This document shows, piece by piece, positions 469 through 59,031 of a stretch of DNA of 64,000 nt. The notes under the pieces were generated by a model, which did no database searches, was not told the DNA's origin, and saw only the letters and a program-made list of their open reading frames with translations. The DNA comes from an uncultured Prevotella sp. GTDB taxonomy: Bacteria > Bacteroidota > Bacteroidia > Bacteroidales > Bacteroidaceae. The position numbers and the translations under genes are program-made. Location: the NCBI GenBank assembly GCA_944320105.1, contig CALUGA010000009.1:1-64000 (forward strand), read 5' to 3'. Numbering within the stretch: the stretch's first letter is position 1; each line of letters opens with the position of its first letter.

Positions 469-652
469 ACCGCGCATTTATCCCTAACCGGCCATCAAAC
501 TGGTTTGGATTTTCCTTGTTTCACATGCTATTTAGCCTGCTCTACACCAAAGCGTAATTAAGCAAACGCCCGCTGCGATTTGGGCATAATTCATGTCGTT
601 TTCCGGCGATTTATAATTTTTCGCCAACCCACTGACAATCAACCAATTAGCA

Positions 653-740
653 AATCCCATCGTTTTACATTGCAAAACAGGCCGTCTGGGAGGCTCAAAC
701 AGGCCGTTTCAGGATGCAAAATGGCCTGTTTTGCAACGGG
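653..740. repeat. 22-nt-period dyad array, copy 1
   Basis: There are four units of a 13-nt core plus a 9-nt linker. Cores are at 653-665 (degenerate), 675-687 (AAACAGGCCGTCT), 697-709 (AAACAGGCCGTTT) and 719-731 (AAATGGCCTGTTT). Linkers are TACATTGCA, GGGAGGCTC, CAGGATGCA and TGCAACGGG. The cores are close to perfect dyads and the period is exactly 22. The rest of the 469-1137 spacer holds the MITE-like element at 846-1057 and no gene I can support. Confidence 0.8.
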
Positions 741-845
741 CTTCCACAGCACCAAACTTACGTGGCACTTTCGGGTTGCCCCAAGCTCCTGTTCGTCCGA
801 CAACGGGAGATAACAACGGAGATAACGCGGAAGTCCACAATAAAC

Positions 846-3596: not shown

Positions 3597-3780
3597 AAGT
3601 TAAGAGTTAAAAATTAAAAGTTGCTCCACCCCTTCGATAATTAAAAGTTAAGAGTTAAAAATTAAAAGTTGCTCCACCCCTTCGATAATTAAAAGTTAAG
3701 AGTTAAAAATTAAAAGTTGCTCCGCCCCTTCGATAATTAAAAGTTAAGAGTTAAGAATTAAAAGTTGCTCCGCCCCTTCC
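3591..3780. repeat. 48-bp tandem repeat, about four copies, starting at the protease stop codon
   Basis: The unit starts AATTAAAAGTTAAGAGTTAA and ends TTGCTCCACCCCTTCGAT. Copies start at 3591, 3639, 3687 and 3735, exactly 48 bases apart, and the last is partial. CCACCCC becomes CCGCCCC in copies 3-4. The first copy begins inside the last codons of the protease gene (AAG AAT TAA). Confidence 0.9.
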
Positions 3781-4675: not shown

Positions 4676-4732
4676 CTTAATTCTTCACTCTTAATTCTTC
4701 ATTCTTCACTCTTAATTCTTCATTCTTATTTT
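4676..4732. repeat. AT-rich repeat overlapping the 3' end of the giant gene
   Basis: Repeats of TTCTTAATTC/TTCTTCAC units run through the stop codon at 4712-4714. The last codons of the giant protein (RMKN) are encoded by the same repeat. Confidence 0.7.
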
Positions 4733-7700
4733 CCCCGTCTTTACGCTCTCCTCGCCTCTAACAATCTCTACTACGGCCACGCCCGATACCGGGGCGGCAA
4801 GACGGAGCGTAGAGCCTGCGGCCACACCCTGCGCAGCCATCACACCCGAGGCAGAGAACACTCGCACCACGTCGCCCTCGGCAAGGCCGGTCACGGCCAC
4901 TGTAGCAGCGGCAGGCGACCAGATGCGGATGGCGTCGGCCATGCGGTCGTCGGCCATGCGCCTGAAGCTAACGGTGAACCGTCCGTTCACCTCGCCGCCC
5001 TCAGTCACGGAGAAGTCGTAGCCACCCTCCAGCAGGTCGGCAGTGCTACCCGTGGCAGCATCGTGCAGCACCACGGCCTCATAGCCGTCGGCGGAACAGT
5101 CATCGGGCAGGGCAATGGTGTACATGCCCGCCTCGGGCAGACTCAGGCCCACGCTCACCGCGCCCTCGCGGTTGACGGCAGAGAGGAGCGAGTAGCGGCC
5201 CGAGCCGCGCTCAGCGAATATCTGCGCAGCGGAGTCAGCCATCCACTTCACGCCGTCAGCCGACAGGTCGAAGTCGGTGCGGGCTGCCGTAGCCTCCACG
5301 GCGTTTAGCTGCAGCACGTCGCCGCCGCCAAGCCCGGCGGAGCGGGTGTCGCCCGCAGCAGTCACGGAGAGCTGTATGGCGGCCATGCCTGCGTAAGCCC
5401 CACCCTCTTCAGGAACGTTGTCCTCATCAGGCTGCTCCACTGCGAACGTCTCGCCCTCGGCCTTCAGCGTGGCCGTTTGGGTGAACACGGCATCGCCTGC
5501 GGGGATGTAGCCCCCAGTGGTAGCCTCGGATGTGTTCAGCGTGATGTAGTTGTCGTCGTCGTGGCCATAGATAACTCGGCCATACTCCATGTCGTCATAT
5601 TTCATGGCACAGAGGTAAGGCGAGCCGAAGAGGTTCCAGCTCATGTTCTCCTTGTGGGTGAAGCGGTTGCCGCCATCGGCGGGCGTTGCCCACGGTTCGT
5701 TGAAGTTGTTGTAGGCCAGCGTCACCTGCTTGGGCGCGTTCATGCCCGGCCCCTCGGCATACACATTGTCGCCCTTGCCAACGAAGCGCACGCGGGCCTC
5801 GGCAGAGCCTTGGCTGTTGTCTATCAGCAGACCCGTGCGGCCGTAGGCGGTGGCGTCAGTCCATGCCTTGCCGTCGGCACTGTCGAAGGTATAGTCGTAG
5901 GCGGCGCGCTTCGCCCCATCGTAATACTTCACGGGCAGGGCTGAGCCATTCTCGAACATGCTCACTTCAAACGGCACGTAAGCCATGTCGATGCCGTCCG
6001 CCGCCACGCTACGCTCCACGATAACGTTATCCAAGCCTATGTTCTTGCCGTTGCCACGCAGTCCGGCGCGGTGCTCCAGCAGCAGCACTCCGGGGCAGAA
6101 CGGGGTTGCGGCGGCATAGTCGCGCCGGAGCAGCAGTTCCTTGCCGCTGCGCACGTACACCACCGACTTACCGTGGGGATAGTCTTCGTCTGTCACAGCA
6201 GCGTTGTCATAATTGATGTTCCACGTCTCGAAGCAACCATTGTCCACCGCGTTGCGTATGCGCAGGTTGCCGGCTATGTCGCGGTGGTGGCCCACGGCAT
6301 CGATGCAAGCCGTGGTAGCGGCGCCGTCGGTGTCACCGTCTATGTCGGCAGACGTTTCCATGAGCTGGTAGTTCCAGTGCTCATCGGCAACGTAATCGTT
6401 TGTCTCTGTGGCGTTGCCCCGATTGTTCGCGCTGCCCTCAGCCGCCGTTATGTCGCGCGTGGCGGTTACGTTCACGGCCTTTGCGCCGCTCACGCCGCCA
6501 TACACAAGCGTATTGTAGAGCATTCCATCGGCTTCGCCGCTAACATCGCCATTGACTATCGACGTGGCGAGGTAACCATTAGTGACAGTGGCATCTCTCG
6601 TCACCACGAAGCCGTCGGACACGGCATCGGCAGCCGCCACGGCCACCGACTGAAGCTCGGTGCGGTTGGCGCGCTCAAGCAATCCGCTGCGGGCGGATAG
6701 CAAACCACTCACAGCATCGCCCACGCCATGCCAATTGCCGTCGGCGTCCTGCGAGATGGCAGATGTCTGCTCGTCGTTCATGCCGCCGTACACCTTGGTA
6801 TTGGGCAGCGTGAGGCGCAGCGACTGCCCATCGATGTTGCTGTGTACAAACACATACCCGCTTTCTCCTTGGTTGTTGTTGGCGTAGATGCCTGCAAGGT
6901 CGGCTGCGCCCTGAAGGTCGTCAAGGGCCTTGTCCCAGCTGCTGCCGTCGGCATCGTCGGCCACCACGTCGGCCTTCACGTAGACAATCGGGCGCAGCGG
7001 AGCCTCATACTCGTAGGCGCCAATGTCTATCGTGCCGTCGGTAAGGCGCGGGTTGCCCGCAAGGTCGCGCTCTGCGGCGGGGATGGGGTCGTCACCAAGT
7101 GCATGGCTGGCGTAAAGCGCGTTGTCGCCCTTGTTAAGCAGCGTGAGACTGGGGCGTATGCGGTAGTCGCGGCTCTCTTTGTCGGCATTGAGCGGGTCGC
7201 GGAAGTTAGGTCCGTTCTCTATGTCCTCGTTGTTCTCGCGGGCTGCCTTGTCGTCATTGCCAGTAAGGCCGAACGCACGGTTGTGGTTTTCGTCGCTTTG
7301 CGAGATGTTGTTAGTCTTGTTGTTCCAGGAGACTGTGTTGTAGATTGAGAGGGCTGGGAGGGCTGAGAGATTTTGGAGGTCTGAGCCGTTGTTGGCGAAC
7401 GTGGTGTTCACGAGCGTGGTCGTGCCATTGGGGGTGAGACCTGCCAGGCCGTTGTCGGCAAAGAGGGTGTTGTAGATGAGCACCGAGCCGTTGTTATCGC
7501 CAATCCGCATACCGTCACCACCGTTTGCGCGCAGCGCGCCGTTCTTCATGGTGAACGTGCCGCCCTGGGCGGTGGCGGCCATTACGCCGCGCCCCTGGCT
7601 GTTGATGAACGTAAAGCCCTCCACCACCACGTCCTTATTATTGGCATTCACGTTGAGCAGGTTCTCTGCATCAAGGGCGTTAGGATGGTTGCGCACCACG

Positions 7701-10700
7701 GTCTGGTTGGCGAAGTCCTGCGTATGGGCGACGCCTGTGCAGGAGCCTTTGATGGTGAGCGAATCGGAAAGATTGTTGTCGCTCATGGTGAGCACATAGG
7801 CCTGCCCGGCTGATAGGCGCGGCAGCGAGTAGTTGCCGTTGCGCACGTAAATCGTCCGCGCCCCCGCGTTCTGGTCCGGGTTTGACGCCCCGGCTATGGC
7901 ACCGCGCAGGTCGCTGGTGGCGTTGGCCCAGCTGTCGCCGCTGCGGTTGCCGGCATCCTCGGTGGCCACGTATATGGCGAGCATGGTGCGGAAGTTCGAC
8001 ACATACTGGTACTCGTAAGCGCCTATGTCGATGGGGCGGTCGCCAGTGATTCCGGTGCCGGGGTCTACGGGGCCTGAGTAGCGCTCGTAGTAAGCATTGC
8101 CCATGTATTGGTTGCAATAAGCGACAAGCTCGTCATCGCCAAACCATTCGTTATACGCCCCCGAGACGGCGCCGCTGGCGTTGGTGAGTCCGTCGCCCGC
8201 ATCGGTGGCCACGGAGATGGCGGCAGGATTCCAGAGGTTGGTGGCGTCGTTGCCGCCGATTCCCGCCGTGGCAGCTGGCTTGACGAAGCGCGGGCCTGAA
8301 GCATCGGCGTTGCGGGCGGCGAGCAGTATGTTGCCGCTGGCGTTGCCGTCGGCAAACTTGCCTGCATAGTCGTGGTCGCTGGCCGAGTGGCTGATGGCTA
8401 CGTGGGCTGCGTCGGTCTCTGTGTCATAGCCTTGGCTTTCGTTGCCCCAGATGAGGGTGTTGGTGAGTGTGCTCTTGCCGTTGTGGTTGTAAAGCACAGC
8501 GTTGGTCTGGGCCTTGTTGCGGGCGAAGGTACAGTTAATGATGTCGAGCCGCGGGTCTACGTTGGTGATAACGCCCTCGGCGAAGTTTGTGCCTATGGCA
8601 CCGCCCTGCCCTGTGGTCTCGTTGTTCACGAAGAGCGAGTTTACTGCATGGAGCGAAGTACCGTCATAATTGATGCCCGCAAGGAAGATGGCTCCGCCGC
8701 GGGCGGGCTGGGTAGTGCCAGAAATATCAGGAAGCTCTGGTGCCGTCATGTTGGCAGACCAGCCGTTGCCGGCGAAGATTGAGCCTATGACGTTGAGGCG
8801 GGCGTCGCGCACGAAGACGGCACCGCCGCGCACTCCGTAGTTGTTCATCAGTCGGCAGCGGCTGAGCGTGTAGCCCACGCCGTCGGAATAGATGCCGCCG
8901 CCACGGCCCTGCTCGTTGCTCTCGGACACTGCGGAGAGCACGTTGCTGGTCTCGCCGTTCATCACGGTGAGCCCGTCGAGCGTCACGGGCATGGGGTCGC
9001 TTACGCCGGTGGCATCGGAGTAAACCACGTGGTAGACGTTGCTCGCCGTGGCCGATACGTTGATGTTGCCCGAGAGGATGGTCTGGTTGGCCAGCTCCCA
9101 GGCCTCTTCGATGCCGTTCTGGTTGAAGTCGGAATACTTGCGGACATCTATTATGCCATTGATGTTGCCATCGGCTGCAAGCTTCAAGGTAGAGCCGTCG
9201 GCGCAACTGATGCTCTCAACACCGCCTGAAGAGATAAGCTCAGTGCCGCTGAAGCCGCCATATATCCTCACCCCGTGGGGAACGGCGAACGAGTAGAGAC
9301 GCTGGTCGTAAGCCACGTCGGCGGTTGTCTCGCGCTGCGTGGAGGGCTTGTAGGTGCCGCCGCCCACGAGAATCTCGAACTCCTCGTTGGCGTAGCCTTT
9401 CTCCCGCTGCTGGCGGATGTAGGCGAGCGCATCGTCGAGGGAGGAGAACGAGGTGTAGAACGAGCGGCCGAGATAGTCCATCATCTTGGTGTCGTCTTCA
9501 AGCTTCACGTTGGCCGTTTGCGACACGAAGAGACGCTTGAAGAAGCTGGTGGGCAGCACACCGCCGTTGTAAGCAAAGGCGCCGGCGTCGATGCGCTCAA
9601 GCTGCTGGTTGCGATCGATGCCCTGCACGTCCTGCGCGCTTACGCCGAACTCCGCTGCGAGCGCATCCTGGTACTCATCCCTGACGCCGTGCTTCACGAG
9701 GGGCGAAAACTCTTTGAGGCGACGGTAGCTGTCGGCAAAGTAAACGGTGGAGTCGCCCGTCATGGAGGCGTTCTCGAAGTCGGAGGGCATCTCCTGGCGC
9801 TCAATGAAGCAGTCGTTGAATGGATAATACTCGCCATCGTTCACATCACCGAACACGGTGGCAAGGCGACTGTCGGCAAAACGCTCCGTGCCAACACCGC
9901 TCACGTTGCGGCCCGAGGGGGCGTCGTTGCCCCAGATTACGGTGTTTACGCTCATGGCAGCCCCATCCTCAAGGTAGAGGCCGCCGCCGTCGTCGGCAGT
10001 GTTGTCGGCAATGGTGCATGAGATGATGTGGGCACGGCTGTCCTCAGCGGCATCTGTGTTGTCGGCATAGATGCCGCCGCCGCTCGTGGCGGTGTTGCGC
10101 AGCAGGGCCGTGCCGCTGACGGTGGCGCCCGGCATGAGGTAGAGGCCGCCGCCCTCAATGGCCGTGCAGCCCTCCACGATGCAGTTCCTCACGTGCGCCC
10201 CGGCAGGCACTATGGCACCGCCGCCACGGGTGTTGGGGTTGCCCGCCCCGGCCAACGACGTGGCCGAGCCGTCGGTGAGCCACAGGCCGTCGATGATGGC
10301 TGGCTCTTCGAGAGCCGCCGTGCCGGGCCAGCTGCCAAAGGTTACGGTGTGGAAGCCCTGCACCTCCTGCGGTATCGTTGAGCCTTGCGCAGGCACCGCC
10401 ACGGCACTGAGCACCGTGCGGAAGCGCATAACGTCACGTGCTTCGGTATTATTCCAGTCCTCAGCTTCATCATTATAGCCGCCCATGAGCGTAACGCCTG
10501 CCGGCACAACGTAAGTGTAACTCTGAGGACTGTTTGCATCTGCCAACGTATTGGCATGGTAAACGAACGAAGCATCCTCGTAGCCTGCCACCTTGACTAC
10601 AGCATAAACAAAAAAACCATCTTTAACTTTTTCACCTGCATCCGTAAGTATATTCTGAAGTTTCATGGCACATGCCGCATTGGCTTCATTCTCGCCACTG

Positions 10701-13700
10701 CGAGACCCTGCACCATTTTGGGATACATAATATGTGCCTACACTATTTCCGGAAGTACTTGTCTGGGTGTATTTTATATTATCTTCATTGTCGCTTTCGT
10801 ATGCACCAATATCAATTGTACAGTCCTTTATACGGTTTGTGTAGTCCATATCTGTGTCTGGTATGCTCACACCATCACCAAGATTTTCAGTTCCAGTATT
10901 AAGGCATGTACTTCCCACTGCAAGTCGATAATTATTTTCCGATTGAGCAGAATTGCCTCTTGCAAAAGGATTGGGAAGATTTTCTCCTACTTGATTTCTG
11001 TAAACATTGTCATTTGTCACAAATTGGCCTCTGATATTATCACCAACGCGTCCACTGACATAACAATTGTAAGGCTTATCGAATGTGGTTGGAGCAGAAG
11101 AAGTTATTTGATAATTTGTATAATAGTTGTAATCTACATGTGTTACACCAACATTTCCATAAATAATACAATTATACAACCCTAATTTTGAAAGACGAGT
11201 CATATTGTCTTCAGCATATTGGAAAATGCCACTGCCATTACCTGCGTCTAACGGTTTTCTGTCACCTGTACGATTGAAAGCAACTGTATTGTTATAAAAA
11301 GTTGCACTCTCAATAAAGAGACCACCACCTGCGACTTCTGCATGATTGTTGGCAACAACCATATTAAATCCTGTACCGACAATCATATAAGCCCCACCGC
11401 CATAAGACTCGGCTCCACTGCTCAGATTATTAACAAGGAAGCTGTTGTTTATAACACTGTTCAAACCATCCATATAAAGCCCGCCACCACGAGAACGACT
11501 ACCATGGGTATAGTTGTTCACAACAACCAAGTTCTGGAGTGTGACGCCACGAAAGGCACGAACACCTGCACCGCCATCACGGTTTGCTGTGTAATTCTTA
11601 ATATATCCATGCCTTACAGTGAAGCCGTCCCACAATGCGCGGGTATATTCAACGTAATGCTGTGGGTCTTCGTTGTAACGGTAACGGTTAGCACCCCACT
11701 TATCGGCATCGTTATTTTCAACAGCCCAAGTAGGAACACAGACATCCGGCTGATACAATACATAATGACGTACGGTAGAAGAGCCAGGCATCCAACTGTC
11801 ACTGACAACTTTACCCGTATTGTTATTTGTCCACGTCACCGGTGATTCTTTGCGAATCTGTAGTATTGTCTCATAATCACGCGCCTTCAATGTGTTATCG
11901 CGCGATGGAATATAACCAGACAACAAGGCCATACGGTCGTCCTCACCAGGAGTACCGTCATTTGGGAATCCGCCGTAGACACGAACGCTGTCGCGGATTA
12001 CAAAACCTTTGTAATCCGTGTAAATACCTGCTCCGACCCACACGTCTATTCTTTCACTTACAGGATGGGTCTTGTTCCATTCAGACGCTTTCTCAATGGC
12101 ATACTGAAGACCACTGACGTATTGCTCATCACGGTTGTTGGTTATTACGTTGTTATAATCTCCTCTATAATTGTGAGTTCCGTCCAAAAATGTACCGTAA
12201 TGTCCAGCTGTTGGACCGTAAGTACTGCTTCTGTAAAGGTCATAATCATAAGAAGAAGGTTTCAGCACACCGTCTCTCACGATGTAAAAGTCATTTCCGT
12301 CGCCATTACTTTCCAAGTTGCATATTGCATTGCCATTAATTGCGTTCTCCCACGACGAGCCGTCGCCCGCAGTGGAGATATCCATGCTCGGCGAACCGTC
12401 GATTTCCTCGCGGTCGCCATCCCACACGGTGTTGTACGAGCGGACATAAATCACCTTGCCAGCTCGCGGCAAGTCGGCCTCGTATGCGCCAAGATCGGGA
12501 ACGCCGCCGAGGTTGCGCTCGTTGCCCATGATGTCGGCAGCGAGGGCTGTGGATGCACCTTTATTAATAATGTGGGTGGCAGCGTCGGCAGAGCTTGTTA
12601 GCGGGCGGAACGAGGAGTAGCCGCCGAGGTAGGTGTCGAAGCCGAGCGTCGCACCGCGCCCGTTGGTGGGGTTGGCGAAGTTCTTCGCACCGTCGGCGCC
12701 GGTGGTGGCCAGCTTCTTGTCGATGCTGTTATTGCTCGTGTTGCCCTTGGAGAACGAGCTACCCGTGAGTACATCTTCGTTGGTCACTGCCGCCCCGATG
12801 TTGTTCACTATGGTAACGTGCTCCATGGTTAGGTTGCCGGCGGGGCAGTTCACAATGGCCGTGGTCTCGTCGGTGTTAGTATTGTTGTTCACCACGCAGT
12901 TGCGCATGGTGAGAGTGGCGTTGCGGGCGTCGATGGCGGCGGCTGTGGCAGCGGTGTTGTTCTCGAAGATGCAGTTGGTGAGGGTTACATCGGCCCCGTC
13001 GCGCACGAGCATTCCCGCGCCATACTGCAGCGAGGCTGCCCCGGCGGCGTAGCCGTTGATTACGTGGAAGCCGTCAAGCTCAACGTTGGCGCCCTGCTCC
13101 ACTGTCACCACGTGGTAGAGTCCGTCTTCGAGCGAGTCGCCGCCGTTGTTGCCGTTGAGCTGCGAGCGGTAGGTGAGCGGGTCGCGCACCACGCTGCGGC
13201 TCTCAGCATCGTTGCGGTGGTAGCCGCCTACGATGCGCAGTGGCTTGCCGCTCTGCATGGCGAGGATGTCGAGCGTGGCGGTCTTCGGGTCGTCGTTTAC
13301 AAAGGCGTAGCGCGGCCAGAGGTTGCCCTCAAGCACACGGATGACGAGGGAGTCGACGTTATCTTTGAACATCTGGGTTTGTAAAACCATCTTCTGCCCG
13401 CTACTCATGATAGTATCGCTGCCGGGGGTAATGGTTGCGAAGAAACTGATGGCATCGTTGAGCGAGCGGTATGCCGTAGCCCACGACGAGCCGTCGTGCG
13501 ACGGCTCTGTGCAGCCGGCATCCACGTAGATTACAAGGTTATAATTATTTTCAGCATTGCGCTCCAGCGCAGGCACTATGGGCGAACGGTCTACATGGAA
13601 AGCGCCCACGGCGGGCTTCTGGTCGAAGAGGCCGCCCTCGATGTCAATCTCGGGGGCGAGCACCACCTCTGCGGGCAACTGACCGATGGCCATGCCTCGC

Positions 13701-16336
13701 GCCCAGAGGTTGGAGCCGGCAATGGGCTTCCAGTAGTAGTCGATGGCGGTGCCGTTGGCGGAGTTCCAATCTGACTGCACTCCAATCTTGCCTTGCAGGC
13801 TGTTGTCATCGGTGTAGTTTGTAGCCCCGGTGTTGGTGGCGAATCGCGGGCCAATGCTCTCGCTGTTGTCCGTTATGCCCCGATTGGCGTCTACGAGGCT
13901 GAGCGTCTGCTCCTGCAGCGTGTTGTTCCACACGGCGTTGTTCACGCCCGACATGGCGTTGTACATGAAGCGCACGTCGGCCACCTGCGGGTTGCGGGCG
14001 TACATTGGTATATTGGTGGAAGTCTGCGCGTCGCTGCCCATGCGGTTGTTCCACACCACTGAGTTGGCCACGAGGGCGTAGCCGTCGATGTATATGCCGC
14101 CGGTCTGCGAGGCGTTGGGGTCGGTCAGGTCGGTGGCGGTGATGCAGTTGTTGTTGGCAATGGTGTTCTGCAGCAGCACGCCGCCTCGGGCGCAGTACAC
14201 CGCTCCGTTGCCTCGGGCGGTGTTGTTGGTCACCACGCAGGTGGAGAGCACGAGGTACTCGGGGATGGAGCCGTCGCCCACGCTGTTGTCGAGGTATGCG
14301 GCTGCTCCGTTGCGCGCCGTGTTGTTGGCGAGCATGGAGCGGTGCACGAGGCCCTGGCCGCTCACGTAGACCGCGCCGCCGGCAGCCTCGGCGTTGTTGT
14401 TGTATATGAGCGACGTCTGCACGCGCCCATCCTTGAGCCACACTCCGCCGCCGTTGCCCGTGGCGTAGTTCTCCTTCACGATGCAGTTTTGCAGGCGGGC
14501 GTTCTCGCCGTCGATGTAAACGCCGGCGCCGCAGTCGGTCATGAAGTCAGCCAGGCCCGTGTTGCCCTGGGCGTAGCCGCCCCGGATGGTTACGCCGTCG
14601 AGCACGGTGACGCGGGCGAACGCCTGCTCACCCTGCATGGGGGCAAACCATACGACGTGGCGCGAGTCGCTGGTGAGCGTCCAGCGGCCGTCGGCGTAGG
14701 CAAGGTTTGCGTGGTCGTAGTATGCGCCGGAGAGCACCGTCGTGTTCTTGAACTGCCACGGCATGGAGCCGCTCATCTCGCGCTCGGTCTTCGACGTCTC
14801 TGTGCCGGCAAAACCGCCATAGACGCTTATGCCGGAACGCATACGGAAGGAAGCGGAATAGTTCATGCCGCTGATTACGTAGGACTGCGGTTCATACTCA
14901 CCCGCAGCCACCCACACTTCGCCGGGCAGCTGCTGCGGGTTGTCATCGGCAAGGTCGTCGATCATGGCCTGTATGTTGCCGGAAGCATTATCCCACGACG
15001 TGCCGTCGCCGGTGCCGCCGGGCCTTACGTAGCGCACACGGCCCTCGGCCATGGGCTGGTACTCAAAAGCGCCAATGTCGATGCTGTTCCCGGCGATGCG
15101 GGCATTGCCGCCGAGGTCGGCAGAGCCGAAGTAAGACTCCGTGTAAGCCCCGTTGTCGCCCGCATCAACGAGCGGCGTGGCCTCCATGGGTTCCCATGTC
15201 CAGAGGGGGTAGAGCTGCGAAAGGATGAGGTAGTCGGTGTCGAAGCCAATCTTTACCGACGGCGAGCTGAAGTGGGGGCCGTCGGGCTCGTTGTTCTTGG
15301 CGGCGAGGTAAACGTTGTCATTGCCTTCGGTGCCGCCGGGGTTGGCCTCGGGGTAGGCCGAATGGCTGAAAACGGGGCGGGAGGCGGCGGTCATGGAGAG
15401 GAGCGAGTTGCCCCACACCACGGTGTTGAGCACTTGGGTGGAAGAATTGCCATCGATGCCGGCGCCGGTGTTGCGCACCACGGTGGAGTTGATGACGCGG
15501 GCATTATTGCCGGAAAGGAGGATGCCACCGTTTTCGTTGTTGAACACGGCGGTGTTCACCACTGTGCCTGCGCCCCGCAGGCTGATGGCGCCGCCCGAGT
15601 TGGAGAGCGTGCCGCGCGCCCCGGCGGCGTTGTTGAAGAAGCCGCAGCGGTCCACGATGCCGCCCTGAACGCCGTCGGCCACATAGAGCGCGCCGCCCTC
15701 AGCGGCATAGTTCTCTATGAAGAAGCAGCGGCGTATCTCGTAGTTGACGCCTTGGCCAGTGACAAGGATGCCGCCGCCCTGTTCGCCTGCGCCGTCGGCG
15801 TGGCCACGGGCTATGGTGATGCCGTCCACCACGGTGGGCTGCTGGTTCTGGTTGCCGCTCGCTTGGGTGCGCTCAAGGTTGAGCGTGAGCACACGGGTGG
15901 CATTATCCTGCCGCAACGTGTTGGCGGGGAAGATGAGGTTTGTTGCGTCTACAGTGTCATCGCGCTGGATGTCGGCGGTGAGCACCGTGCGGTAGGCCAT
16001 GCGGTAAGCCTTGCCGTCGATTACGGCGCGCCCGTCGATGGAAGCCTCCGTGCCGGCAAAACCGCCATAGAGGCGAACGCCGGCCTTGAGCGTATAGCCG
16101 CTCTGAGGCACCACATACGAATGCTCGCGTCCGCCTTCGGAATAGCCCATGAGCCACAGCTCGTCGCCAGCCACGGCGCGTTGTATGGCCGTGGCCAGCG
16201 GCAGGGGGGTATCCCACGACGCGCCTGTGCCTCCATCGGTTGCATTAACGGTTACATAATATCTCGTGGCCTGCGCCCCAACAGGGAGCAGAGCCGCCAT
16301 CATCATGACACACAAAAAACGAAAAACCTTATTCAT
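4712..16336 (-). CDS. Giant (3874 aa) parallel beta-helix surface protein with T9SS sorting domain
   Basis: A signal peptide (ending PVGAQA) is followed by repeated pectate-lyase-like right-handed beta-helix modules. Each starts near YV...G.G.SWD.A, has an I.VYGGF.GTE turn and stretches such as NCIF.NN.A and GGG.Y..., and ends in an IDIGAFEYQ-type motif (choice-of-anchor Q style). Such ends lie near residues 422, 915 (variant), 1282, 1842, 2252, 2771, 3105 and 3370, so there are about eight modules. Residues about 3400-3800 differ. The C-terminus (VTGLAEGDVVRVFSASG...KTGKIRMKN) is a type A type IX sorting domain. The protein is probably a cell-surface adhesin or glycan-binding protein. It lies last in the fimbrial locus on the same strand, behind a 737-base repeat-filled spacer, so co-transcription is uncertain. 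Residues about 1330-1915 are encoded by markedly AT-rich DNA. Confidence 0.9.
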   Translation of the reverse strand: MNKVFRFLCVMMMAALLPVGAQATRYYVTVNATDGGTGASWDTPLPLATAIQRAVAGDELWLMGYSEGGREHSYVVPQSGYTLKAGVRLYGGFAGTEASIDGRAVIDGKAYRMAYRTVLTADIQRDDTVDATNLIFPANTLRQDNATRVLTLNLERTQASGNQNQQPTVVDGITIARGHADGAGEQGGGILVTGQGVNYEIRRCFFIENYAAEGGALYVADGVQGGIVDRCGFFNNAAGARGTLSNSGGAISLRGAGTVVNTAVFNNENGGILLSGNNARVINSTVVRNTGAGIDGNSSTQVLNTVVWGNSLLSMTAASRPVFSHSAYPEANPGGTEGNDNVYLAAKNNEPDGPHFSSPSVKIGFDTDYLILSQLYPLWTWEPMEATPLVDAGDNGAYTESYFGSADLGGNARIAGNSIDIGAFEYQPMAEGRVRYVRPGGTGDGTSWDNASGNIQAMIDDLADDNPQQLPGEVWVAAGEYEPQSYVISGMNYSASFRMRSGISVYGGFAGTETSKTEREMSGSMPWQFKNTTVLSGAYYDHANLAYADGRWTLTSDSRHVVWFAPMQGEQAFARVTVLDGVTIRGGYAQGNTGLADFMTDCGAGVYIDGENARLQNCIVKENYATGNGGGVWLKDGRVQTSLIYNNNAEAAGGAVYVSGQGLVHRSMLANNTARNGAAAYLDNSVGDGSIPEYLVLSTCVVTNNTARGNGAVYCARGGVLLQNTIANNNCITATDLTDPNASQTGGIYIDGYALVANSVVWNNRMGSDAQTSTNIPMYARNPQVADVRFMYNAMSGVNNAVWNNTLQEQTLSLVDANRGITDNSESIGPRFATNTGATNYTDDNSLQGKIGVQSDWNSANGTAIDYYWKPIAGSNLWARGMAIGQLPAEVVLAPEIDIEGGLFDQKPAVGAFHVDRSPIVPALERNAENNYNLVIYVDAGCTEPSHDGSSWATAYRSLNDAISFFATITPGSDTIMSSGQKMVLQTQMFKDNVDSLVIRVLEGNLWPRYAFVNDDPKTATLDILAMQSGKPLRIVGGYHRNDAESRSVVRDPLTYRSQLNGNNGGDSLEDGLYHVVTVEQGANVELDGFHVINGYAAGAASLQYGAGMLVRDGADVTLTNCIFENNTAATAAAIDARNATLTMRNCVVNNNTNTDETTAIVNCPAGNLTMEHVTIVNNIGAAVTNEDVLTGSSFSKGNTSNNSIDKKLATTGADGAKNFANPTNGRGATLGFDTYLGGYSSFRPLTSSADAATHIINKGASTALAADIMGNERNLGGVPDLGAYEADLPRAGKVIYVRSYNTVWDGDREEIDGSPSMDISTAGDGSSWENAINGNAICNLESNGDGNDFYIVRDGVLKPSSYDYDLYRSSTYGPTAGHYGTFLDGTHNYRGDYNNVITNNRDEQYVSGLQYAIEKASEWNKTHPVSERIDVWVGAGIYTDYKGFVIRDSVRVYGGFPNDGTPGEDDRMALLSGYIPSRDNTLKARDYETILQIRKESPVTWTNNNTGKVVSDSWMPGSSTVRHYVLYQPDVCVPTWAVENNDADKWGANRYRYNEDPQHYVEYTRALWDGFTVRHGYIKNYTANRDGGAGVRAFRGVTLQNLVVVNNYTHGSRSRGGGLYMDGLNSVINNSFLVNNLSSGAESYGGGAYMIVGTGFNMVVANNHAEVAGGGLFIESATFYNNTVAFNRTGDRKPLDAGNGSGIFQYAEDNMTRLSKLGLYNCIIYGNVGVTHVDYNYYTNYQITSSAPTTFDKPYNCYVSGRVGDNIRGQFVTNDNVYRNQVGENLPNPFARGNSAQSENNYRLAVGSTCLNTGTENLGDGVSIPDTDMDYTNRIKDCTIDIGAYESDNEDNIKYTQTSTSGNSVGTYYVSQNGAGSRSGENEANAACAMKLQNILTDAGEKVKDGFFVYAVVKVAGYEDASFVYHANTLADANSPQSYTYVVPAGVTLMGGYNDEAEDWNNTEARDVMRFRTVLSAVAVPAQGSTIPQEVQGFHTVTFGSWPGTAALEEPAIIDGLWLTDGSATSLAGAGNPNTRGGGAIVPAGAHVRNCIVEGCTAIEGGGLYLMPGATVSGTALLRNTATSGGGIYADNTDAAEDSRAHIISCTIADNTADDGGGLYLEDGAAMSVNTVIWGNDAPSGRNVSGVGTERFADSRLATVFGDVNDGEYYPFNDCFIERQEMPSDFENASMTGDSTVYFADSYRRLKEFSPLVKHGVRDEYQDALAAEFGVSAQDVQGIDRNQQLERIDAGAFAYNGGVLPTSFFKRLFVSQTANVKLEDDTKMMDYLGRSFYTSFSSLDDALAYIRQQREKGYANEEFEILVGGGTYKPSTQRETTADVAYDQRLYSFAVPHGVRIYGGFSGTELISSGGVESISCADGSTLKLAADGNINGIIDVRKYSDFNQNGIEEAWELANQTILSGNINVSATASNVYHVVYSDATGVSDPMPVTLDGLTVMNGETSNVLSAVSESNEQGRGGGIYSDGVGYTLSRCRLMNNYGVRGGAVFVRDARLNVIGSIFAGNGWSANMTAPELPDISGTTQPARGGAIFLAGINYDGTSLHAVNSLFVNNETTGQGGAIGTNFAEGVITNVDPRLDIINCTFARNKAQTNAVLYNHNGKSTLTNTLIWGNESQGYDTETDAAHVAISHSASDHDYAGKFADGNASGNILLAARNADASGPRFVKPAATAGIGGNDATNLWNPAAISVATDAGDGLTNASGAVSGAYNEWFGDDELVAYCNQYMGNAYYERYSGPVDPGTGITGDRPIDIGAYEYQYVSNFRTMLAIYVATEDAGNRSGDSWANATSDLRGAIAGASNPDQNAGARTIYVRNGNYSLPRLSAGQAYVLTMSDNNLSDSLTIKGSCTGVAHTQDFANQTVVRNHPNALDAENLLNVNANNKDVVVEGFTFINSQGRGVMAATAQGGTFTMKNGALRANGGDGMRIGDNNGSVLIYNTLFADNGLAGLTPNGTTTLVNTTFANNGSDLQNLSALPALSIYNTVSWNNKTNNISQSDENHNRAFGLTGNDDKAARENNEDIENGPNFRDPLNADKESRDYRIRPSLTLLNKGDNALYASHALGDDPIPAAERDLAGNPRLTDGTIDIGAYEYEAPLRPIVYVKADVVADDADGSSWDKALDDLQGAADLAGIYANNNQGESGYVFVHSNIDGQSLRLTLPNTKVYGGMNDEQTSAISQDADGNWHGVGDAVSGLLSARSGLLERANRTELQSVAVAAADAVSDGFVVTRDATVTNGYLATSIVNGDVSGEADGMLYNTLVYGGVSGAKAVNVTATRDITAAEGSANNRGNATETNDYVADEHWNYQLMETSADIDGDTDGAATTACIDAVGHHRDIAGNLRIRNAVDNGCFETWNINYDNAAVTDEDYPHGKSVVYVRSGKELLLRRDYAAATPFCPGVLLLEHRAGLRGNGKNIGLDNVIVERSVAADGIDMAYVPFEVSMFENGSALPVKYYDGAKRAAYDYTFDSADGKAWTDATAYGRTGLLIDNSQGSAEARVRFVGKGDNVYAEGPGMNAPKQVTLAYNNFNEPWATPADGGNRFTHKENMSWNLFGSPYLCAMKYDDMEYGRVIYGHDDDNYITLNTSEATTGGYIPAGDAVFTQTATLKAEGETFAVEQPDEDNVPEEGGAYAGMAAIQLSVTAAGDTRSAGLGGGDVLQLNAVEATAARTDFDLSADGVKWMADSAAQIFAERGSGRYSLLSAVNREGAVSVGLSLPEAGMYTIALPDDCSADGYEAVVLHDAATGSTADLLEGGYDFSVTEGGEVNGRFTVSFRRMADDRMADAIRIWSPAAATVAVTGLAEGDVVRVFSASGVMAAQGVAAGSTLRLAAPVSGVAVVEIVRGEESVKTGKIRMKN
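7340..7382. repeat. 9-nt GGGAGG-type repeat inside the giant gene
   Basis: The run GAGAGGGCTGGGAGGGCTGAG resembles the GGGAGAACT satellites found in spacers at 18170, 23806, 27297 and 31806. Here it is in frame and encodes part of LQNLSALPALSIYN, while beta-helix spacing on both sides continues. Confidence 0.4.
10590..12345 (-). other. AT-rich module inside the giant gene
   Basis: Base composition changes sharply inside one open frame. By hand count, bases 11101-11160 have 15 G+C of 60, while 14401-14460 have 39 of 60. The segment encodes about residues 1330-1915, roughly one helix module including one IDIGAYE end. The frame is intact on both sides, which suggests replacement or gain of a module from a low-GC source. 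Confidence 0.7.
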
Positions 16337-17028
16337 ATATTGTATATCTTTAGTTCAGGAGTTCAGACGTATGCGGGCAAGCCCAGTTGAAAGGCGCAGC
16401 CCAGTCTCCAGTATTCAGTATTCAGAGTTCTGTCTTCTGTATTCTGTCTTCTGTATTCACTTTCATCCCAGTTTCCGCCACGTTCCGGCGGGTTTGCAAC
16501 CCGCCGGGTGGAGGTTGGGGGTTTGCACCCCCCGCAGCGGACACGCTGCCATGCTCCTTGTTTTCCCTGCCGGCGTTTGTTGTCGGGTCGCTGACCCGGC
16601 GCCGGGAGGCGGCGGGTTGCAAACCCGCCGCAACGTGCCATCCCCGCAACGGCGCGCTGCCATATTCCTTGTTTTCCCTGCCCGCGTTTTTTTGTCGGGT
16701 TGCAAACCCGACCCAGGGGAGGCGGCGGGTTGCAAACCCGCCGCAACGTGGGCGGGCAACGTGGATGCCTGCGTGGGAGGCAACGGGGCCGCAACTGGGA
16801 GTCCGAAACCCGCCGCAACGGCGGGTTTGCAAGCCCCAGTTAACTTCCACGTCCCGGCGGGTTTGCAGCCCCAGTCAACTTCCACGTTCCGGCGGGGTTA
16901 CGCCCCCAGTTAACTTCCACGTCCCGGCGGGTTTGCAACCCGCCGGGTAGGGATTGGGGGTTTGCAACCCCCGCAACGTGGGTGATACGTTGTCTCAAAC
17001 TTGCAGCAAAATTAAAGGGATTGTGGCC
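16337..17028. repeat. Repeat-filled spacer of GC-rich REP-like palindromes
   Basis: No gene is supported here. From 16425 there are TTCTGTCTTCTGTATTC repeats. From about 16481 to 16985 two kinds of block alternate: CGGCGGGTTTGCAACCCGCC-type palindromes, and CCGGGTCGCAGACCCGG/GGCGGGTTGCAAACCCGCC blocks. Open frames that cross it are translated repeat. Confidence 0.8.
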
Positions 17029-21578: not shown

Positions 21579-22261
21579 AATTGTTTTGTTTTTATTGGGG
21601 TTGATTGTTTGTTTCATTTTGCCGGGTCTGAGACCCAGCCCAGGGGAGGCGGCGGGTTGCAAACCCGCCGCAACGGGGGAGGGCAACGGGGCCGCAGCGG
21701 GGCGGGCAGCAGGGTGGGCTGCGTGGGAGGCAGCGGCATGACTGCCATATATCCTATTTCCCTGTTGGCGCCACGTTCCGGCGGGTTTTAGCTTTTAGCT
21801 GCCCTGTTGGCGCCACGTTCCGGCGGGTTTTAGCTTTTAGCTGCCCTGTTGGCGCCACGTTCCGGCGGGTTTTAGTTTTTAGCTGCCCAGTTGGCGCCAC
21901 GTTCCGGCGGGTTTGCAACCCGCCGGGTGGGGGTTGGGGGTTTGCAACCCCCGCAGCGGACACGCTGCCCCATTTATTATTACCTTTCCCATCGGCACTT
22001 GTTGCCGGGTCTCAGACCCGGCCCAGGGGAGGCGGCGGGTTGCAAACCCGCCGCAACGTGGGAGGGCAACGTGGGAGGGCAGTGGGGCGAGCTGCGTGGG
22101 AGGCAGCGGGACCGCAGGGAGAGGGGGCTGCAGCGGGGAGATGGCGGCGCGCGGCAAGAATGCCGCACCCCCTAAGGCCTGCCCACATATTCTTTTAATT
22201 TTTATCTTTTATCTTTTAACTTTTAATTTTTAACTTTTAATTTTTAACTTCATGGCCTTCC
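21579..22261. repeat. Spacer of REP-like palindromes and 42-bp tandem repeats
   Basis: No gene is supported. REP-like blocks lie at about 21621-21680 and 21896-22065. Between them a 42-bp unit (starting CCTGTTGGCGCCACGTTCCG) repeats at 21761, 21803, 21845 and 21887. AT-rich TTTTAATTTTTAAC repeats run from about 22195 to 22250 near the DUF3868 stop. Confidence 0.8.
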
Positions 22262-27296: not shown

Positions 27297-27403
27297 ATGA
27301 GAGTTCTGGGAGTTCTGGGAGTTCTGGGAGGGCTGGGAGAACTGGGAGTTCTGGGAGAACTGGGAGAACTGAGAGAGCTGGGAGAGCTGGGAGCTATGGG
27401 AGA
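27297..27403. repeat. 9-nt-period repeat (GGGAGTTCT/GGGAGAACT)
   Basis: About eleven imperfect 9-nt units lie between the dnaA stop and the TonB receptor start. AGTTCT and AGAACT units alternate, so parts are self-complementary. AT-rich repeats at 27436-27472 then lead into the dnaA stop. Confidence 0.8.
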
Positions 27404-27455
27404 GCTGCGCCGCACCTCACAAAGCTTGCCAGCATATTCTTTTAACTCTTAATTT

Positions 27456-32249: not shown

Positions 32250-32362
32250 TAAGGATGATAGGGCTTGATAGGACTAATAGGACTAATAGGACTAATAAGC
32301 CAAATAAGGCCGATAGGGCTAATAAGGCTAATAGGACTAATAAGGCTAATAGGACTAATAAG
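32250..32362. repeat. 9-nt-period repeat (CTAATAGGA) upstream of folB
   Basis: About eleven units of CTAATAGGACTAATAAGG-type sequence sit between the folB start and the nrdJ terminator, so they form the folB leader if it is transcribed from further upstream. Confidence 0.8.
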
Positions 32363-35431: not shown

Positions 35432-35519
35432 AAACAGCCCATATCGCAGCCTCAAACAGGCCGTTTGGCAATGCGAAAAGGGCTGTTTGGGAGCGCAAAA
35501 CGGCACATATCGCAACGCA
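35432..35519. repeat. 22-nt-period dyad array, copy 2
   Basis: Four units. Cores are AAACAGCCCATAT (35432), AAACAGGCCGTTT (35454), AAAAGGGCTGTTT (35476) and AAACGGCACATAT (35498). Linkers are CGCAGCCTC, GGCAATGCG, GGGAGCGCA and CGCAACGCA. The period is exactly 22. Confidence 0.85.
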
Positions 35520-43493: not shown

Positions 43494-43594
43494 ACAATGT
43501 CGTTTTTACAATGCCAAACGGCCTGTTCCGCGCTGCAAAACGCATGGTTCTGCGGTGCGAAACAGGCCGTTTGTCAATGCAAGAACGCCGGTGC
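43494..43594. repeat. 22-nt-period dyad array, copy 3
   Basis: Cores are at 43494 (degenerate), 43516 (AAACGGCCTGTTC), 43538 (AAACGCATGGTTC), 43560 (AAACAGGCCGTTT) and 43582 (degenerate). Linkers are TACAATGCC, CGCGCTGCA, TGCGGTGCG and GTCAATGCA. The array lies in the spacer between the fkp stop and the GSCFA gene start. Confidence 0.82.
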
Positions 43595-51173: not shown

Positions 51174-51246
51174 AGTAAAGATATTTCGCACCCCAGAAGG
51201 TTGGGACGCCCCTACAGGCAACAGCCTCTGCCTCAACGGGTTACCG

Positions 51247-51347
51247 ACAACTGCCATCTTGCGATGCAAAACGGGTCGTTTCGCTCTTCGAAACGGCCCG
51301 TTTTACGTTGCAAGAAAGCCCGTTTTGCAGGGCAAAACGGGCGAAGC
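51247..51347. repeat. 22-nt-period dyad array, copy 4
   Basis: Five units. Cores are ACAACTGCCATCT (51247, degenerate), AAACGGGTCGTTT (51269), AAACGGCCCGTTT (51291, a perfect dyad), AGAAAGCCCGTTT (51313) and AAACGGGCGAAGC (51335). Linkers are TGCGATGCA, CGCTCTTCG, TACGTTGCA and TGCAGGGCA. The 51307-51345 stretch can also form a hairpin with arms GCCCGTTTTG/CAAAACGGGC. Confidence 0.85.
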
Positions 51348-51473
51348 CAATGTCCAGCTTGGCTTTTGTAAAGTTTTCTAACGCAATGACCCCAAATGCC
51401 ACCGCCAACAGGTAGCACATAAAAAAGCCAAGGAGCAAAGACCGCGCACGGCCCTGCCACCGCGCATACGTCT

Positions 51474-58223: not shown

Positions 58224-58381
58224 CACATTTTACTCCATATTAATACTTGCGCGCCCCACATTTTTAAAAGCCAAGGCACAAATACGCGCCGCCATTGCCA
58301 CCATGCCCCCTGCCCCGCCGCGCCATGCGGGCTGGTGGCTGCAACGCTGAAACATATTTACAAAACCATCCCCGCCAGCCA

Positions 58382-58491
58382 GTGCCAGCCGTTTTGCCTC
58401 GCCAAACGGCCTGTTCCGCACCCTGAAACGGCACGTTTGGCAAGGTCAAACGGCACGTTTGGCAGCACAAAACGGCACGTTTGGCAAGTCC
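58382..58491. repeat. 22-nt-period dyad array, copy 5
   Basis: Five units, the most regular array. Cores are GTGCCAGCCGTTT (58382, degenerate), AAACGGCCTGTTC (58404), and AAACGGCACGTTT three times (58426, 58448, 58470). Linkers are TGCCTCGCC, CGCACCCTG, GGCAAGGTC, GGCAGCACA and GGCAAGTCC. It lies in the divergent spacer between typA and the GYF_2 cluster. Confidence 0.9.
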
Positions 58492-58636
58492 CTGGCAGCC
58501 AGAACGTTACGCAAAATGCCCGCCGCAGTAAACAAACTTTACAGAAACGAGGCGCATGAAACGGCCACACTCGCCCTCTTTTGAATCCACTCCCAACCGC
58601 TTTTACACCACCCCCACCCTCTGCTACACCCACCCT

Positions 58637-58712
58637 CCCCCACTGTCACACCCAATCTCCCCCACTGTCACACCCAATCTCCCCCACTGTCACACCCAAT
58701 CTCCCCCACTGT
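58637..58712. repeat. 22-bp tandem repeat of a different sequence
   Basis: Three and a half copies of a unit beginning CCCCCACTGTCACACCCAAT start at 58637, 58659, 58681 and 58703. The period again is 22, but the sequence is unrelated to the dyad arrays and the copies are identical, so it looks recently expanded. Confidence 0.85.
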
Positions 58713-59031
58713 TGTGGCGGGTTTGCAACCCGCCACGGCCCTGTAGCGGGTCTGCGACCCGCACAATAAAAAAACCGAAACAAGGGATTGGCGGGTTGCA
58801 AACCCGCGCACAGGACGCAGGCGGGTTGCAGCCCCGCCTGAACGTGGGTGTAAACGTGGCTATAAATAAACAAAACCAACCGCTTGCAATAAGCAAATCA
58901 ACCGCTTGCAACAAGCCACCCAACTATCCACCCGGGGCAACTGCCGCCCCGGAAAAGCGCACAGCCGAATACGAACACCTTGCAAGCTGGCATGAAACAC
59001 CGCTTCCCGCATTCTTTTTCACTATTTTTCA
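58713..59031. repeat. REP-like blocks and spacer before the GYF_2/CD225 cluster
   Basis: GGCGGGTTTGCAACCCGCC, GCGGGTCTGCGACCCGC and GGCGGGTTGCAAACCCGC blocks lie at about 58715-58830. Nothing recognised follows up to the promoter. Confidence 0.7.

What the first reader, a model, noticed from the sequence alone, without database searches (positions are those of the whole stretch)
58382..58491. Five intergenic arrays with a strict 22-nt period: 13-nt dyad core plus 9-nt linker
Arrays at 653-740, 35432-35519, 43494-43594, 51247-51347 and 58382-58491 share one design: a core close to AAACGGCCCGTTT (a dyad) every 22 nt, with 9-nt linkers that often read NNNNNTGCA. I aligned about 16 good cores and none breaks phase. 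Twenty-two bases is about two helical turns, so a protein could bind the units on one face; as RNA each unit could form a small hairpin. Cores vary in compensating ways (AAACAGGCCGTTT, AAACGGCACGTTT, AAATGGCCTGTTT), suggesting the dyad is maintained. Contexts are mixed (divergent, convergent, same strand), and the period is not a multiple of 3, so the arrays are not coding. I know of no described element with this layout; a protein-bound chromosome-organising site, a REP-like family or an RNA element are all possible.
Basis: seen in the sequence. Interest (0 to 1): 0.78.

Follow-up and report, generated by a model that had tools for sequence, protein, structure and literature searches.

The report
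22-base dyad platforms across Prevotella chromosomes
The five arrays are copies of one roughly 200-base DNA element that recurs throughout this Prevotella genome, nearly always between genes and almost never within 5,000 bases of the next copy; each copy carries dyads exactly 22 bases apart, so it is likely a landing platform for a still unidentified DNA-bending, chromosome-organising protein, and it is probably related to a repeat of unknown function reported from Prevotella intermedia.

Summary
The five arrays are part of a fixed ~200-bp element: a GTAAAnATnTTTACAAAA-like end, a half core, three full 13-bp cores and a partial fourth at exactly 22 bp, a CTGAG..CAG/GTTGCG tail, and a second TTTACA end. 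In 864 kb of the 2.27-Mb genome there are 66 copies, in both orientations. Perfect-arm cores within 150 bp of each other lie only 22, 44 or 66 bp apart (68 of 68 pairs). One of 57 gaps between neighbouring copies is under 5 kb (about 17 expected), though spacing is not otherwise even. Of copies with alignable flanks, 21 of 23 are shared with a ~92%-identical relative; cores change less than linkers. The layout recurs in related genomes with different cores. A two-contig genome that is probably P. intermedia has the same architecture downstream of tnaA, matching the published 188-bp repeat PINSR (function unknown). Most likely mechanism, inferred: an architectural protein binds the phased sites and bends the DNA. 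No protein is identified; mobile-element and hairpin explanations remain open.

The parts
58337..58548 (+). whole element around the array of the finding (profile columns -155 to +57)
   Evidence: profile alignment of 64 elements; extent computed
58349..58365 (+). left end motif GAAACATATTTACAAAA
   Evidence: sequence; left-end consensus
58404..58482 (+). four full cores at 22-nt pitch (58404, 58426, 58448, 58470), preceded by a half core ending GCCGTTT (slot from 58382)
58492..58513 (+). tail module CTGGCAGCCAGAACGTTACGCA
   Evidence: sequence; tail consensus
58528..58544 (+). right end motif GTAAACAAACTTTACAG
   Evidence: sequence; right-end consensus
51181..51392 (-). element between the convergent MFS and YfhO genes
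   Evidence: a counterpart is visible at the same place in L031, L032, L033 and L039, reduced in L031 and L033
43428..43639 (-). element between GSCFA and fucose-pyrophosphorylase/GHMP-kinase genes; unusual middle core AACCATGCGTTT kept in L033 and L031
35365..35576 (+). element between divergent ribonucleotide reductase and beta-eliminating lyase (tnaA-like) genes
587..798 (-). element upstream of the peptidase C10 gene

Best explanation
The arrays are the core of a ~200-bp intergenic DNA element with dyads spaced exactly 22 bp, and the element most likely works as a nucleoprotein platform: dimers of a still unidentified protein are predicted to sit side by side on one face of the helix, bend the DNA and anchor chromosome structure. 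Shown: the fixed architecture, the exact pitch, conservation of cores over linkers, shared positions in relatives, avoidance of close neighbours, and lineage-specific cores in related genomes. Predicted by a model: intrinsic curvature from phased A/T tracts. Inferred and untested: that a protein binds, that binding is cooperative, that chromosome organisation is the role, and that the tail and the two AT-rich ends bind further factors. The change of the core between lineages would mean that the binding protein's specificity changes with it.
For: Strict 22/44/66 spacing, 68 of 68. The 64 arrays all score 51-184 bits on one gapless profile. A scan of 864 kb with the array profile adds 2 more, at 97 and 68 bits, and nothing else above 8 bits; the reversed-sequence control reaches 28.8. 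Close neighbours avoided: 1 of 57 gaps under 5 kb, minimum 4,612; four null models give 16-19 such gaps on average and none of 2,000 draws in each reached the observed number or minimum. In the relative G159, 33 copies in 400 kb have a smallest gap of 4,614, but many of these sites are shared with G000. Of 23 own copies with both flanks alignable in the G159 stretches, 21 have a counterpart; reverse 23 of 25. Core identity 0.863 against linker 0.743 in 17 pairs, p=3e-4. Paralogs in G000: core 0.75, linker 0.49, far flank 0.27. Predicted curvature: end-to-end ratio 0.855 against 0.948 shuffled and 0.970 for random genome 110-mers (wedge values recalled). Same pitch with other cores in related genomes.
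Against: No protein identified and no binding data. Copies avoid closeness but are not evenly spaced: the CV of the gaps is 0.84 against 0.85-0.96 in the nulls, not significant. Avoidance is weaker in the P. intermedia-like genome G246: minimum 1,361 bp, 2 gaps under 3 kb against 7.6 expected (p=0.0045), and under 5 kb not different from chance (10 against 11.7). In the curvature model 21 bp, not 22, bends most, and AAA-N9-TTT would bend more than AAA-N7-TTT. G246 copies look recently amplified (core 0.87, linker 0.86), which points to mobility. Elements fold as RNA better than unit-permuted chimeras. GGNCC is under-represented genome-wide (0.61 of expected), so part of the perfect-dyad avoidance need not concern this element.
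Confidence: 0.37

Rival explanations
1. A non-autonomous mobile repeat: the 22-bp units are binding sites of a transposase or recombinase acting in trans (as in Mu or Tn7 ends, recalled), and the avoidance of close neighbours reflects target immunity; copies in the window's genome are mostly old.
For: G246 copies are alike along the element (linker 0.86, spacer 0.72) while far flanks are unrelated (0.29), as after amplification. G032 copies have inverted ends, by eye. Multiple 22-bp sites and immunity fit Mu/Tn7-like systems (recalled; only a search listing seen). Some sites differ between G000 and G159.
Against: No gene-bearing copy was met, though half elements were not searched for; end motifs in G000 are in direct, not inverted, order; 21 of 23 sites shared at about 92% identity; no clean empty site or target duplication, by eye, in the two loci absent from G000 that I read; two element queries found no match in 50,697 phage records.
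Confidence: 0.3
2. A transcript-level element: the repeated dyads fold as RNA hairpins that end or stabilise transcripts from either side.
For: The five window arrays fold with z-scores of -1.4 to -8.3 against dinucleotide shuffles over both strands. Real elements fold about 2-3 kcal/mol better on average than unit-permuted chimeras, with 0 of 60 permutations as low on either strand under either way of cutting units. The 51.2-kb site shows paired arm changes between species, by eye. Across linkers, 2 of 6 double changes in core halves and 3 of 21 within linkers swap Watson-Crick pairs.
Against: No complementarity between fixed slot pairs and no excess of gapless palindromes at any centre (z -0.16); double changes are no more frequent than expected (core 6 against 4.9, linker 21 against 19.1, halves 6 against 8.5); no Rfam match at gathering thresholds; no constant gene context: divergent gaps lead in G000 (21 of 63), convergent in G246 (10 of 36, with 10 more inside crude ORFs). 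Exact pitch is not needed for hairpins.
Confidence: 0.12
3. A strong DNA gyrase wrapping and cleavage site, like E. coli BIME-2 (recalled): the ~11-bp A/T phasing makes a right-handed wrap.
For: Phased A/T tracts over about 110 bp; a random skeleton at 22 bp gives a right-handed path in a simple wedge model, while 21 is flat and 20 left-handed. Avoidance of close neighbours suits topological domains.
Against: Gyrase is conserved, so lineage-specific cores are not expected; the model parameters are recalled and crude; nothing tested directly.
Confidence: 0.08
4. A dispersed transcription-regulatory or insulator element bound by one regulator.
For: Intergenic, both orientations, dyads; 32 of 59 intergenic copies lie in divergent or convergent gaps against 70 of 177 gaps of at least 200 bp.
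Against: The 10 window proteins scanned, mostly neighbours of the five copies, share no function; ~170 copies (extrapolated) with a fixed 200-bp build are unusual for a regulator site.
Confidence: 0.1

Closest known systems
[quoted passage not shown] 2015, PMC4755523; abstract, passages and section 3.4 read)
   Same: Intergenic, ~188 bp against ~200 bp here, 177 and 184 copies against about 174 extrapolated here, no terminal inverted repeats, about three quarters of sites shared between two strains, function unknown. G246 (two contigs, 2.7 Mb) carries the G000-type architecture and has a copy downstream of its tnaA-like gene, as reported for P. intermedia; P. nigrescens NZ_CP082843.1 has a G246-type copy.
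   Different: Core sequences differ from the window's. The paper reports PINSR only in four related species and, in the parts read, does not describe 22-bp dyads; here the layout is found in many further genomes. Its Fig. 4A consensus is not held, so letter-by-letter comparison was not possible. In G000 the copy near tnaA is upstream of it, and at the G180 tnaA-like gene no core triple was found in the 3 kb held.
BrickBuilt elements of Porphyromonas gingivalis (PMC4596501; passages seen)
   Same: Bacteroidales, dispersed, short tandem units with leader and tail.
   Different: 23-nt units, numbered to at least 19 sites, unit number varies between strains, described as a MITE; here the pitch is 22 and the build is nearly fixed.
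REP/REPIN and BIME elements with RAYT (titles and abstract starts in a search listing only)
   Same: Many intergenic palindromic copies.
   Different: No copy near the only Y1 transposase hit of the genome; no hairpin covariation; regular 22-bp multi-dyad build.
Tn7/Mu transposon ends (recalled; listing)
   Same: Several ~22-bp protein sites in a row; target immunity would keep copies apart.
   Different: No transposase found with the element, no inverted ends in G000, sites mostly shared with a relative.

Membership tests
PINSR | intergenic location | tested here: met
   59 of 63 placed elements outside called genes; the other 4 lie in ORFs that may be spurious
PINSR | length about 188 bp and roughly 180 copies per genome | tested here: met
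   conserved span about 200 bp; 66 copies in 864 kb, about 174 by extrapolation
PINSR | no terminal inverted repeats | tested here: met
   end motifs in direct order in the G000 consensus, by reading
PINSR | copy downstream of tnaA in P. intermedia | tested here: met
   L220 of G246: tnaA-like gene 1498-2874 minus, element cores from 1137; that G246 is P. intermedia is inferred
PINSR | match to the published 188-bp consensus | not testable with these tools
   Fig. 4A not held
REP/RAYT | RAYT gene flanked by the repeats | tested here: not met
   only Y1_Tnp hit at C6:1316-1543; nearest element found in C6:1-100000 begins at about 39,094; the 1.3 kb beyond the hit ends at the contig edge
MITE | terminal inverted repeats and target duplication | tested here: inconclusive
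   not seen in G000; inverted ends are visible by eye in G032 copies
BrickBuilt | 23-nt repeat with variable unit number | tested here: not met
   pitch 22 in 68 of 68 pairs; 2, 3, 4, 5 and 6 slots in 1, 8, 42, 12 and 1 of 64 arrays, counts that depend on the detection threshold
CRISPR array | near-identical repeats with longer unique spacers | tested here: not met
   9-nt linkers, variable cores, many dispersed sites
structured RNA | compensatory base-pair changes | tested here: not met
   an excess of folding energy over chimeras remains

The most novel reading that the evidence does not exclude
A family-wide bacterial chromosome-organising element: about 170 platforms of 200 bp per genome, kept kilobases apart, each loading a row of protein dimers at exactly two helical turns, with a recognition code rewritten lineage by lineage together with an undiscovered architectural protein, while the pitch and the overall build stay the same. 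PINSR would be one recently amplified branch of it.
Probability: 0.28. Interest if true: 0.85.

Novelty: new variant of a known kind. Interest (0 to 1): 0.62.

Why it matters
If the inference is right, a large gut and oral bacterial family has a dedicated class of sites for shaping its chromosome, with fast-changing recognition: a test case for how a DNA-binding protein and ~170 sites change together. Even if not, it turns a repeat reported from four oral species into one branch of a wider element with a precise, testable build.

Tried and rejected
Fixed-slot hairpin pairing, tested by permutation, and gapless palindromes at every centre: no signal. Folding energy against unit-permuted chimeras gave an excess on both strands that I could not explain; uneven base composition between elements is one possibility and was not tested. 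Column covariation: the top pairs lie in the tail and look like a one-base register shift there, not pairing. Restriction-site avoidance as the whole reason for imperfect dyads: GGNCC is avoided genome-wide (0.61), cores avoid perfect dyads more (6 where 40 are expected), so it may be a part. Curvature as the sole purpose: the model optimum is 21 bp. RAYT, Rfam and phage links: nothing. Replichore bias could not be tested on a fragmented genome; copies are 30 plus and 34 minus. The place list for G246 was capped and appeared to lack one strand of C1, so I drew nothing from it. Paper searches; two searches found no paper, and only PMC4755523 held PINSR with Prevotella. Papers read beyond listings: PMC4755523 (abstract, passages, section 3.4) and PMC4596501 (passages). 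Dropped rows: 4 of 21 ortholog pairs were left out of the core/linker test (identity outside 0.6-0.97); own and relative copies whose flanks did not align were left out of the 23 and 25 (of 66 and 33); the 51.2-kb element counts as absent in G159 although a reduced copy is visible. Not done: a search for half elements or gene-bearing copies.

Full report
Observation. The five arrays exist where stated and keep 22-nt phase. The genome (G000, 2.27 Mb in 47 contigs, 78% complete) is a Prevotella by the nearest named relatives of the YfhO gene. A degenerate 22-spaced core pair matches 353/344 times against 11/8 for the reversed pattern. I took 800 kb of stretches and added the window: perfect-arm cores within 150 bp of each other are 22, 44 or 66 bp apart in 68 of 68 cases.

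Anatomy. A seed search found 64 arrays in 864 kb. Oriented on a tail motif, all 64 score 51-184 bits on one gapless profile; in some copies the tail is shifted by a base, and a few low scorers, such as the one near C7b 23,159, are irregular. The build: left end GtAAAAAATcTTTACAAAAGCC; about 20 nt; a half core GCCGTTT; linker TGCcTTGCA; three full cores AAACGGCCTGTTT-like; a partial core AAACGGCAC; TGCAA; a tail CTGGG/CTGAG..CAAG/CAG..GTTGCGCA; about 20 nt; right end TGTGAAAAAnTTTACAAA. A second end class (TTGCAnATATGCAA left, TTAACATnnnATGTTA right) is seen by eye in at least 3 of the 64 and at the L032 and L039 sites. A scan with the array profile finds 66 copies and nothing else above 8 bits. 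Orientation is 30 plus, 34 minus.

Spacing. Of 57 gaps between neighbours, one is under 5 kb and the minimum is 4,612 bp. Random placement into intergenic gaps (three variants) or anywhere gives 16 to 19 such gaps on average; in 2,000 draws of each, none matched the observed number or minimum. Beyond that the spacing is not even: the CV is 0.84 against 0.85-0.96 in the nulls, not significant, with gaps up to 67 kb. In G246 the avoidance is weaker: 2 of 35 gaps under 3 kb against 7.6 expected (p=0.0045), no effect at 5 kb, minimum 1,361.

Evolution. Against 400 kb of G159 (about 92% identical in flanks), 21 of 23 own elements with both flanks alignable have a counterpart, and 23 of 25 in reverse. 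The bipA-upstream copy (58.4 kb) is absent in G159 but visible in L031, L032, L034 and L039. In 17 ortholog pairs cores are 0.863 identical, linkers 0.743 (p=3e-4). Paralogs within G000 are 0.75 identical in cores, 0.49 in linkers and 0.27 in far flanks, which suggests they are old; in G246 they are 0.87, 0.86 and 0.29, which suggests recent amplification.

Dyads. Pairs across linkers fare no better than chance in number (6 double changes against 8.5 expected, 2 of them Watson-Crick swaps; within linkers 21 against 19.1, 3 swaps). Most often one pair at position 5 or 6 of the core is broken. Part of this may be genome-wide avoidance of GGNCC.

RNA or DNA hairpins. The window arrays fold well (z -1.4 to -8.3), as repeated near-palindromes would. 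Against chimeras made by swapping whole units between elements, gapless complementarity shows no excess, but folding energy does, by about 2-3 kcal/mol (z -3.3 to -5.8, 0 of 60 on either strand under either cut). I report this as unexplained; it keeps the hairpin rival open.

Bending. With recalled wedge parameters, elements are predicted to be curved (0.855 against 0.948 for shuffles, 0.970 genome). A random skeleton AAA-N7-TTT at 22 bp gives a right-handed path; 21 bp would bend most in plane, and AAA-N9-TTT more than AAA-N7-TTT. So curvature may contribute but does not fix the pitch.

Breadth. Without assuming a motif, lags 22 and 44 stand out in 80 relative loci, with other arms too (GAAC..GTTC in L041, AGA..TCT in L106). 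A skeleton pattern that assumes AAA..TTT, and so misses other arms, is found in 102 of 151 genomes of the family with up to 1 mismatch and in 86 of 150 of the genus exactly. By my reading of the tables, 10 of 151 and 27 of 150 have at least 10 matches and three times the control, so bare presence overstates it; the rule also leaves out G149 and G246, whose reversed controls are high. That the family is Bacteroidaceae in the GTDB sense is recalled. Cores differ by lineage: AAACCAATCGTTT (G032), AAACTGTCAGTTT (G149), AAACACCAAGTTT (G114), AAAGGTGCCCTTT (X. caecicola), AAAGCATAGGTTT (H. saccharolytica).

Link to PINSR. G246 has two contigs (the first 1,965,935 bp) and 2.7 Mb in all; its copies show a comparable left end, half core, four cores, tail and TGTGAAAAATATTTACA right end, and one lies downstream of the tnaA-like gene, as reported for P. 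intermedia ATCC 25611. At G180's tnaA-like gene no core triple was found. P. nigrescens FDAARGOS_1486 carries the G246 type (77% over 86% of the query). In about 250 kb of that record, a scan with the G246 profile gives 6 hits, two of the G246 type (88 and 121 bits) and four weaker ones (11-15 bits, control below -90) with other cores; none falls in 300-450 kb, which holds conjugative-transposon genes but also ordinary genes. I conclude that G246's repeat is very probably PINSR and the window's element its relative; the published consensus could not be compared.

Mechanism. Exact pitch with free linkers, more conserved cores, avoidance of close neighbours and shared positions fit a multi-dimer protein platform best; the protein, cooperativity and chromosome role are inference. 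Recent amplification in G246 and inverted ends in G032 keep the mobile-element rival strong.

Noticed in passing
window 58626-58712 and 58865-58924: Two further tandem repeats with a 22-nt period but unrelated sequence lie just beyond the 58.4-kb element.
   Followed up: no
window 16530-16755, 58715-58860: Palindromic GGCGGGTTGCAAACCCGCC-type repeats, apparently a separate REP-like family.
   Followed up: no
window, e.g. 3591-3779, 22191-22250, 27301-27407, 32258-32360: Many heptamer (TTTTAAC-like) and 9-mer (CTGGGAGAA-like, ATAGGACTA-like) tandem repeats.
   Followed up: no
G000, 864 kb: GGNCC (0.61), GATC (0.22) and CTAG (0.04) are under-represented, possibly restriction pressure.
   Followed up: partly
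G093, G051, G025, G136, G171: The reversed control pattern (TTT-N7-AAA cores at 22 bp) is more frequent than the forward one, by far in most of these; possibly arrays with inverted arms.
   Followed up: no
L266 and L262 (P. nigrescens NZ_CP082843.1): Besides G246-type copies, elements with AAACAGGCTCTTT-like cores are present, some with a similar tail, so two core types seem to coexist in one replicon.
   Followed up: partly
window 4712-16336 minus: A 3,874-codon open reading frame.
   Followed up: no
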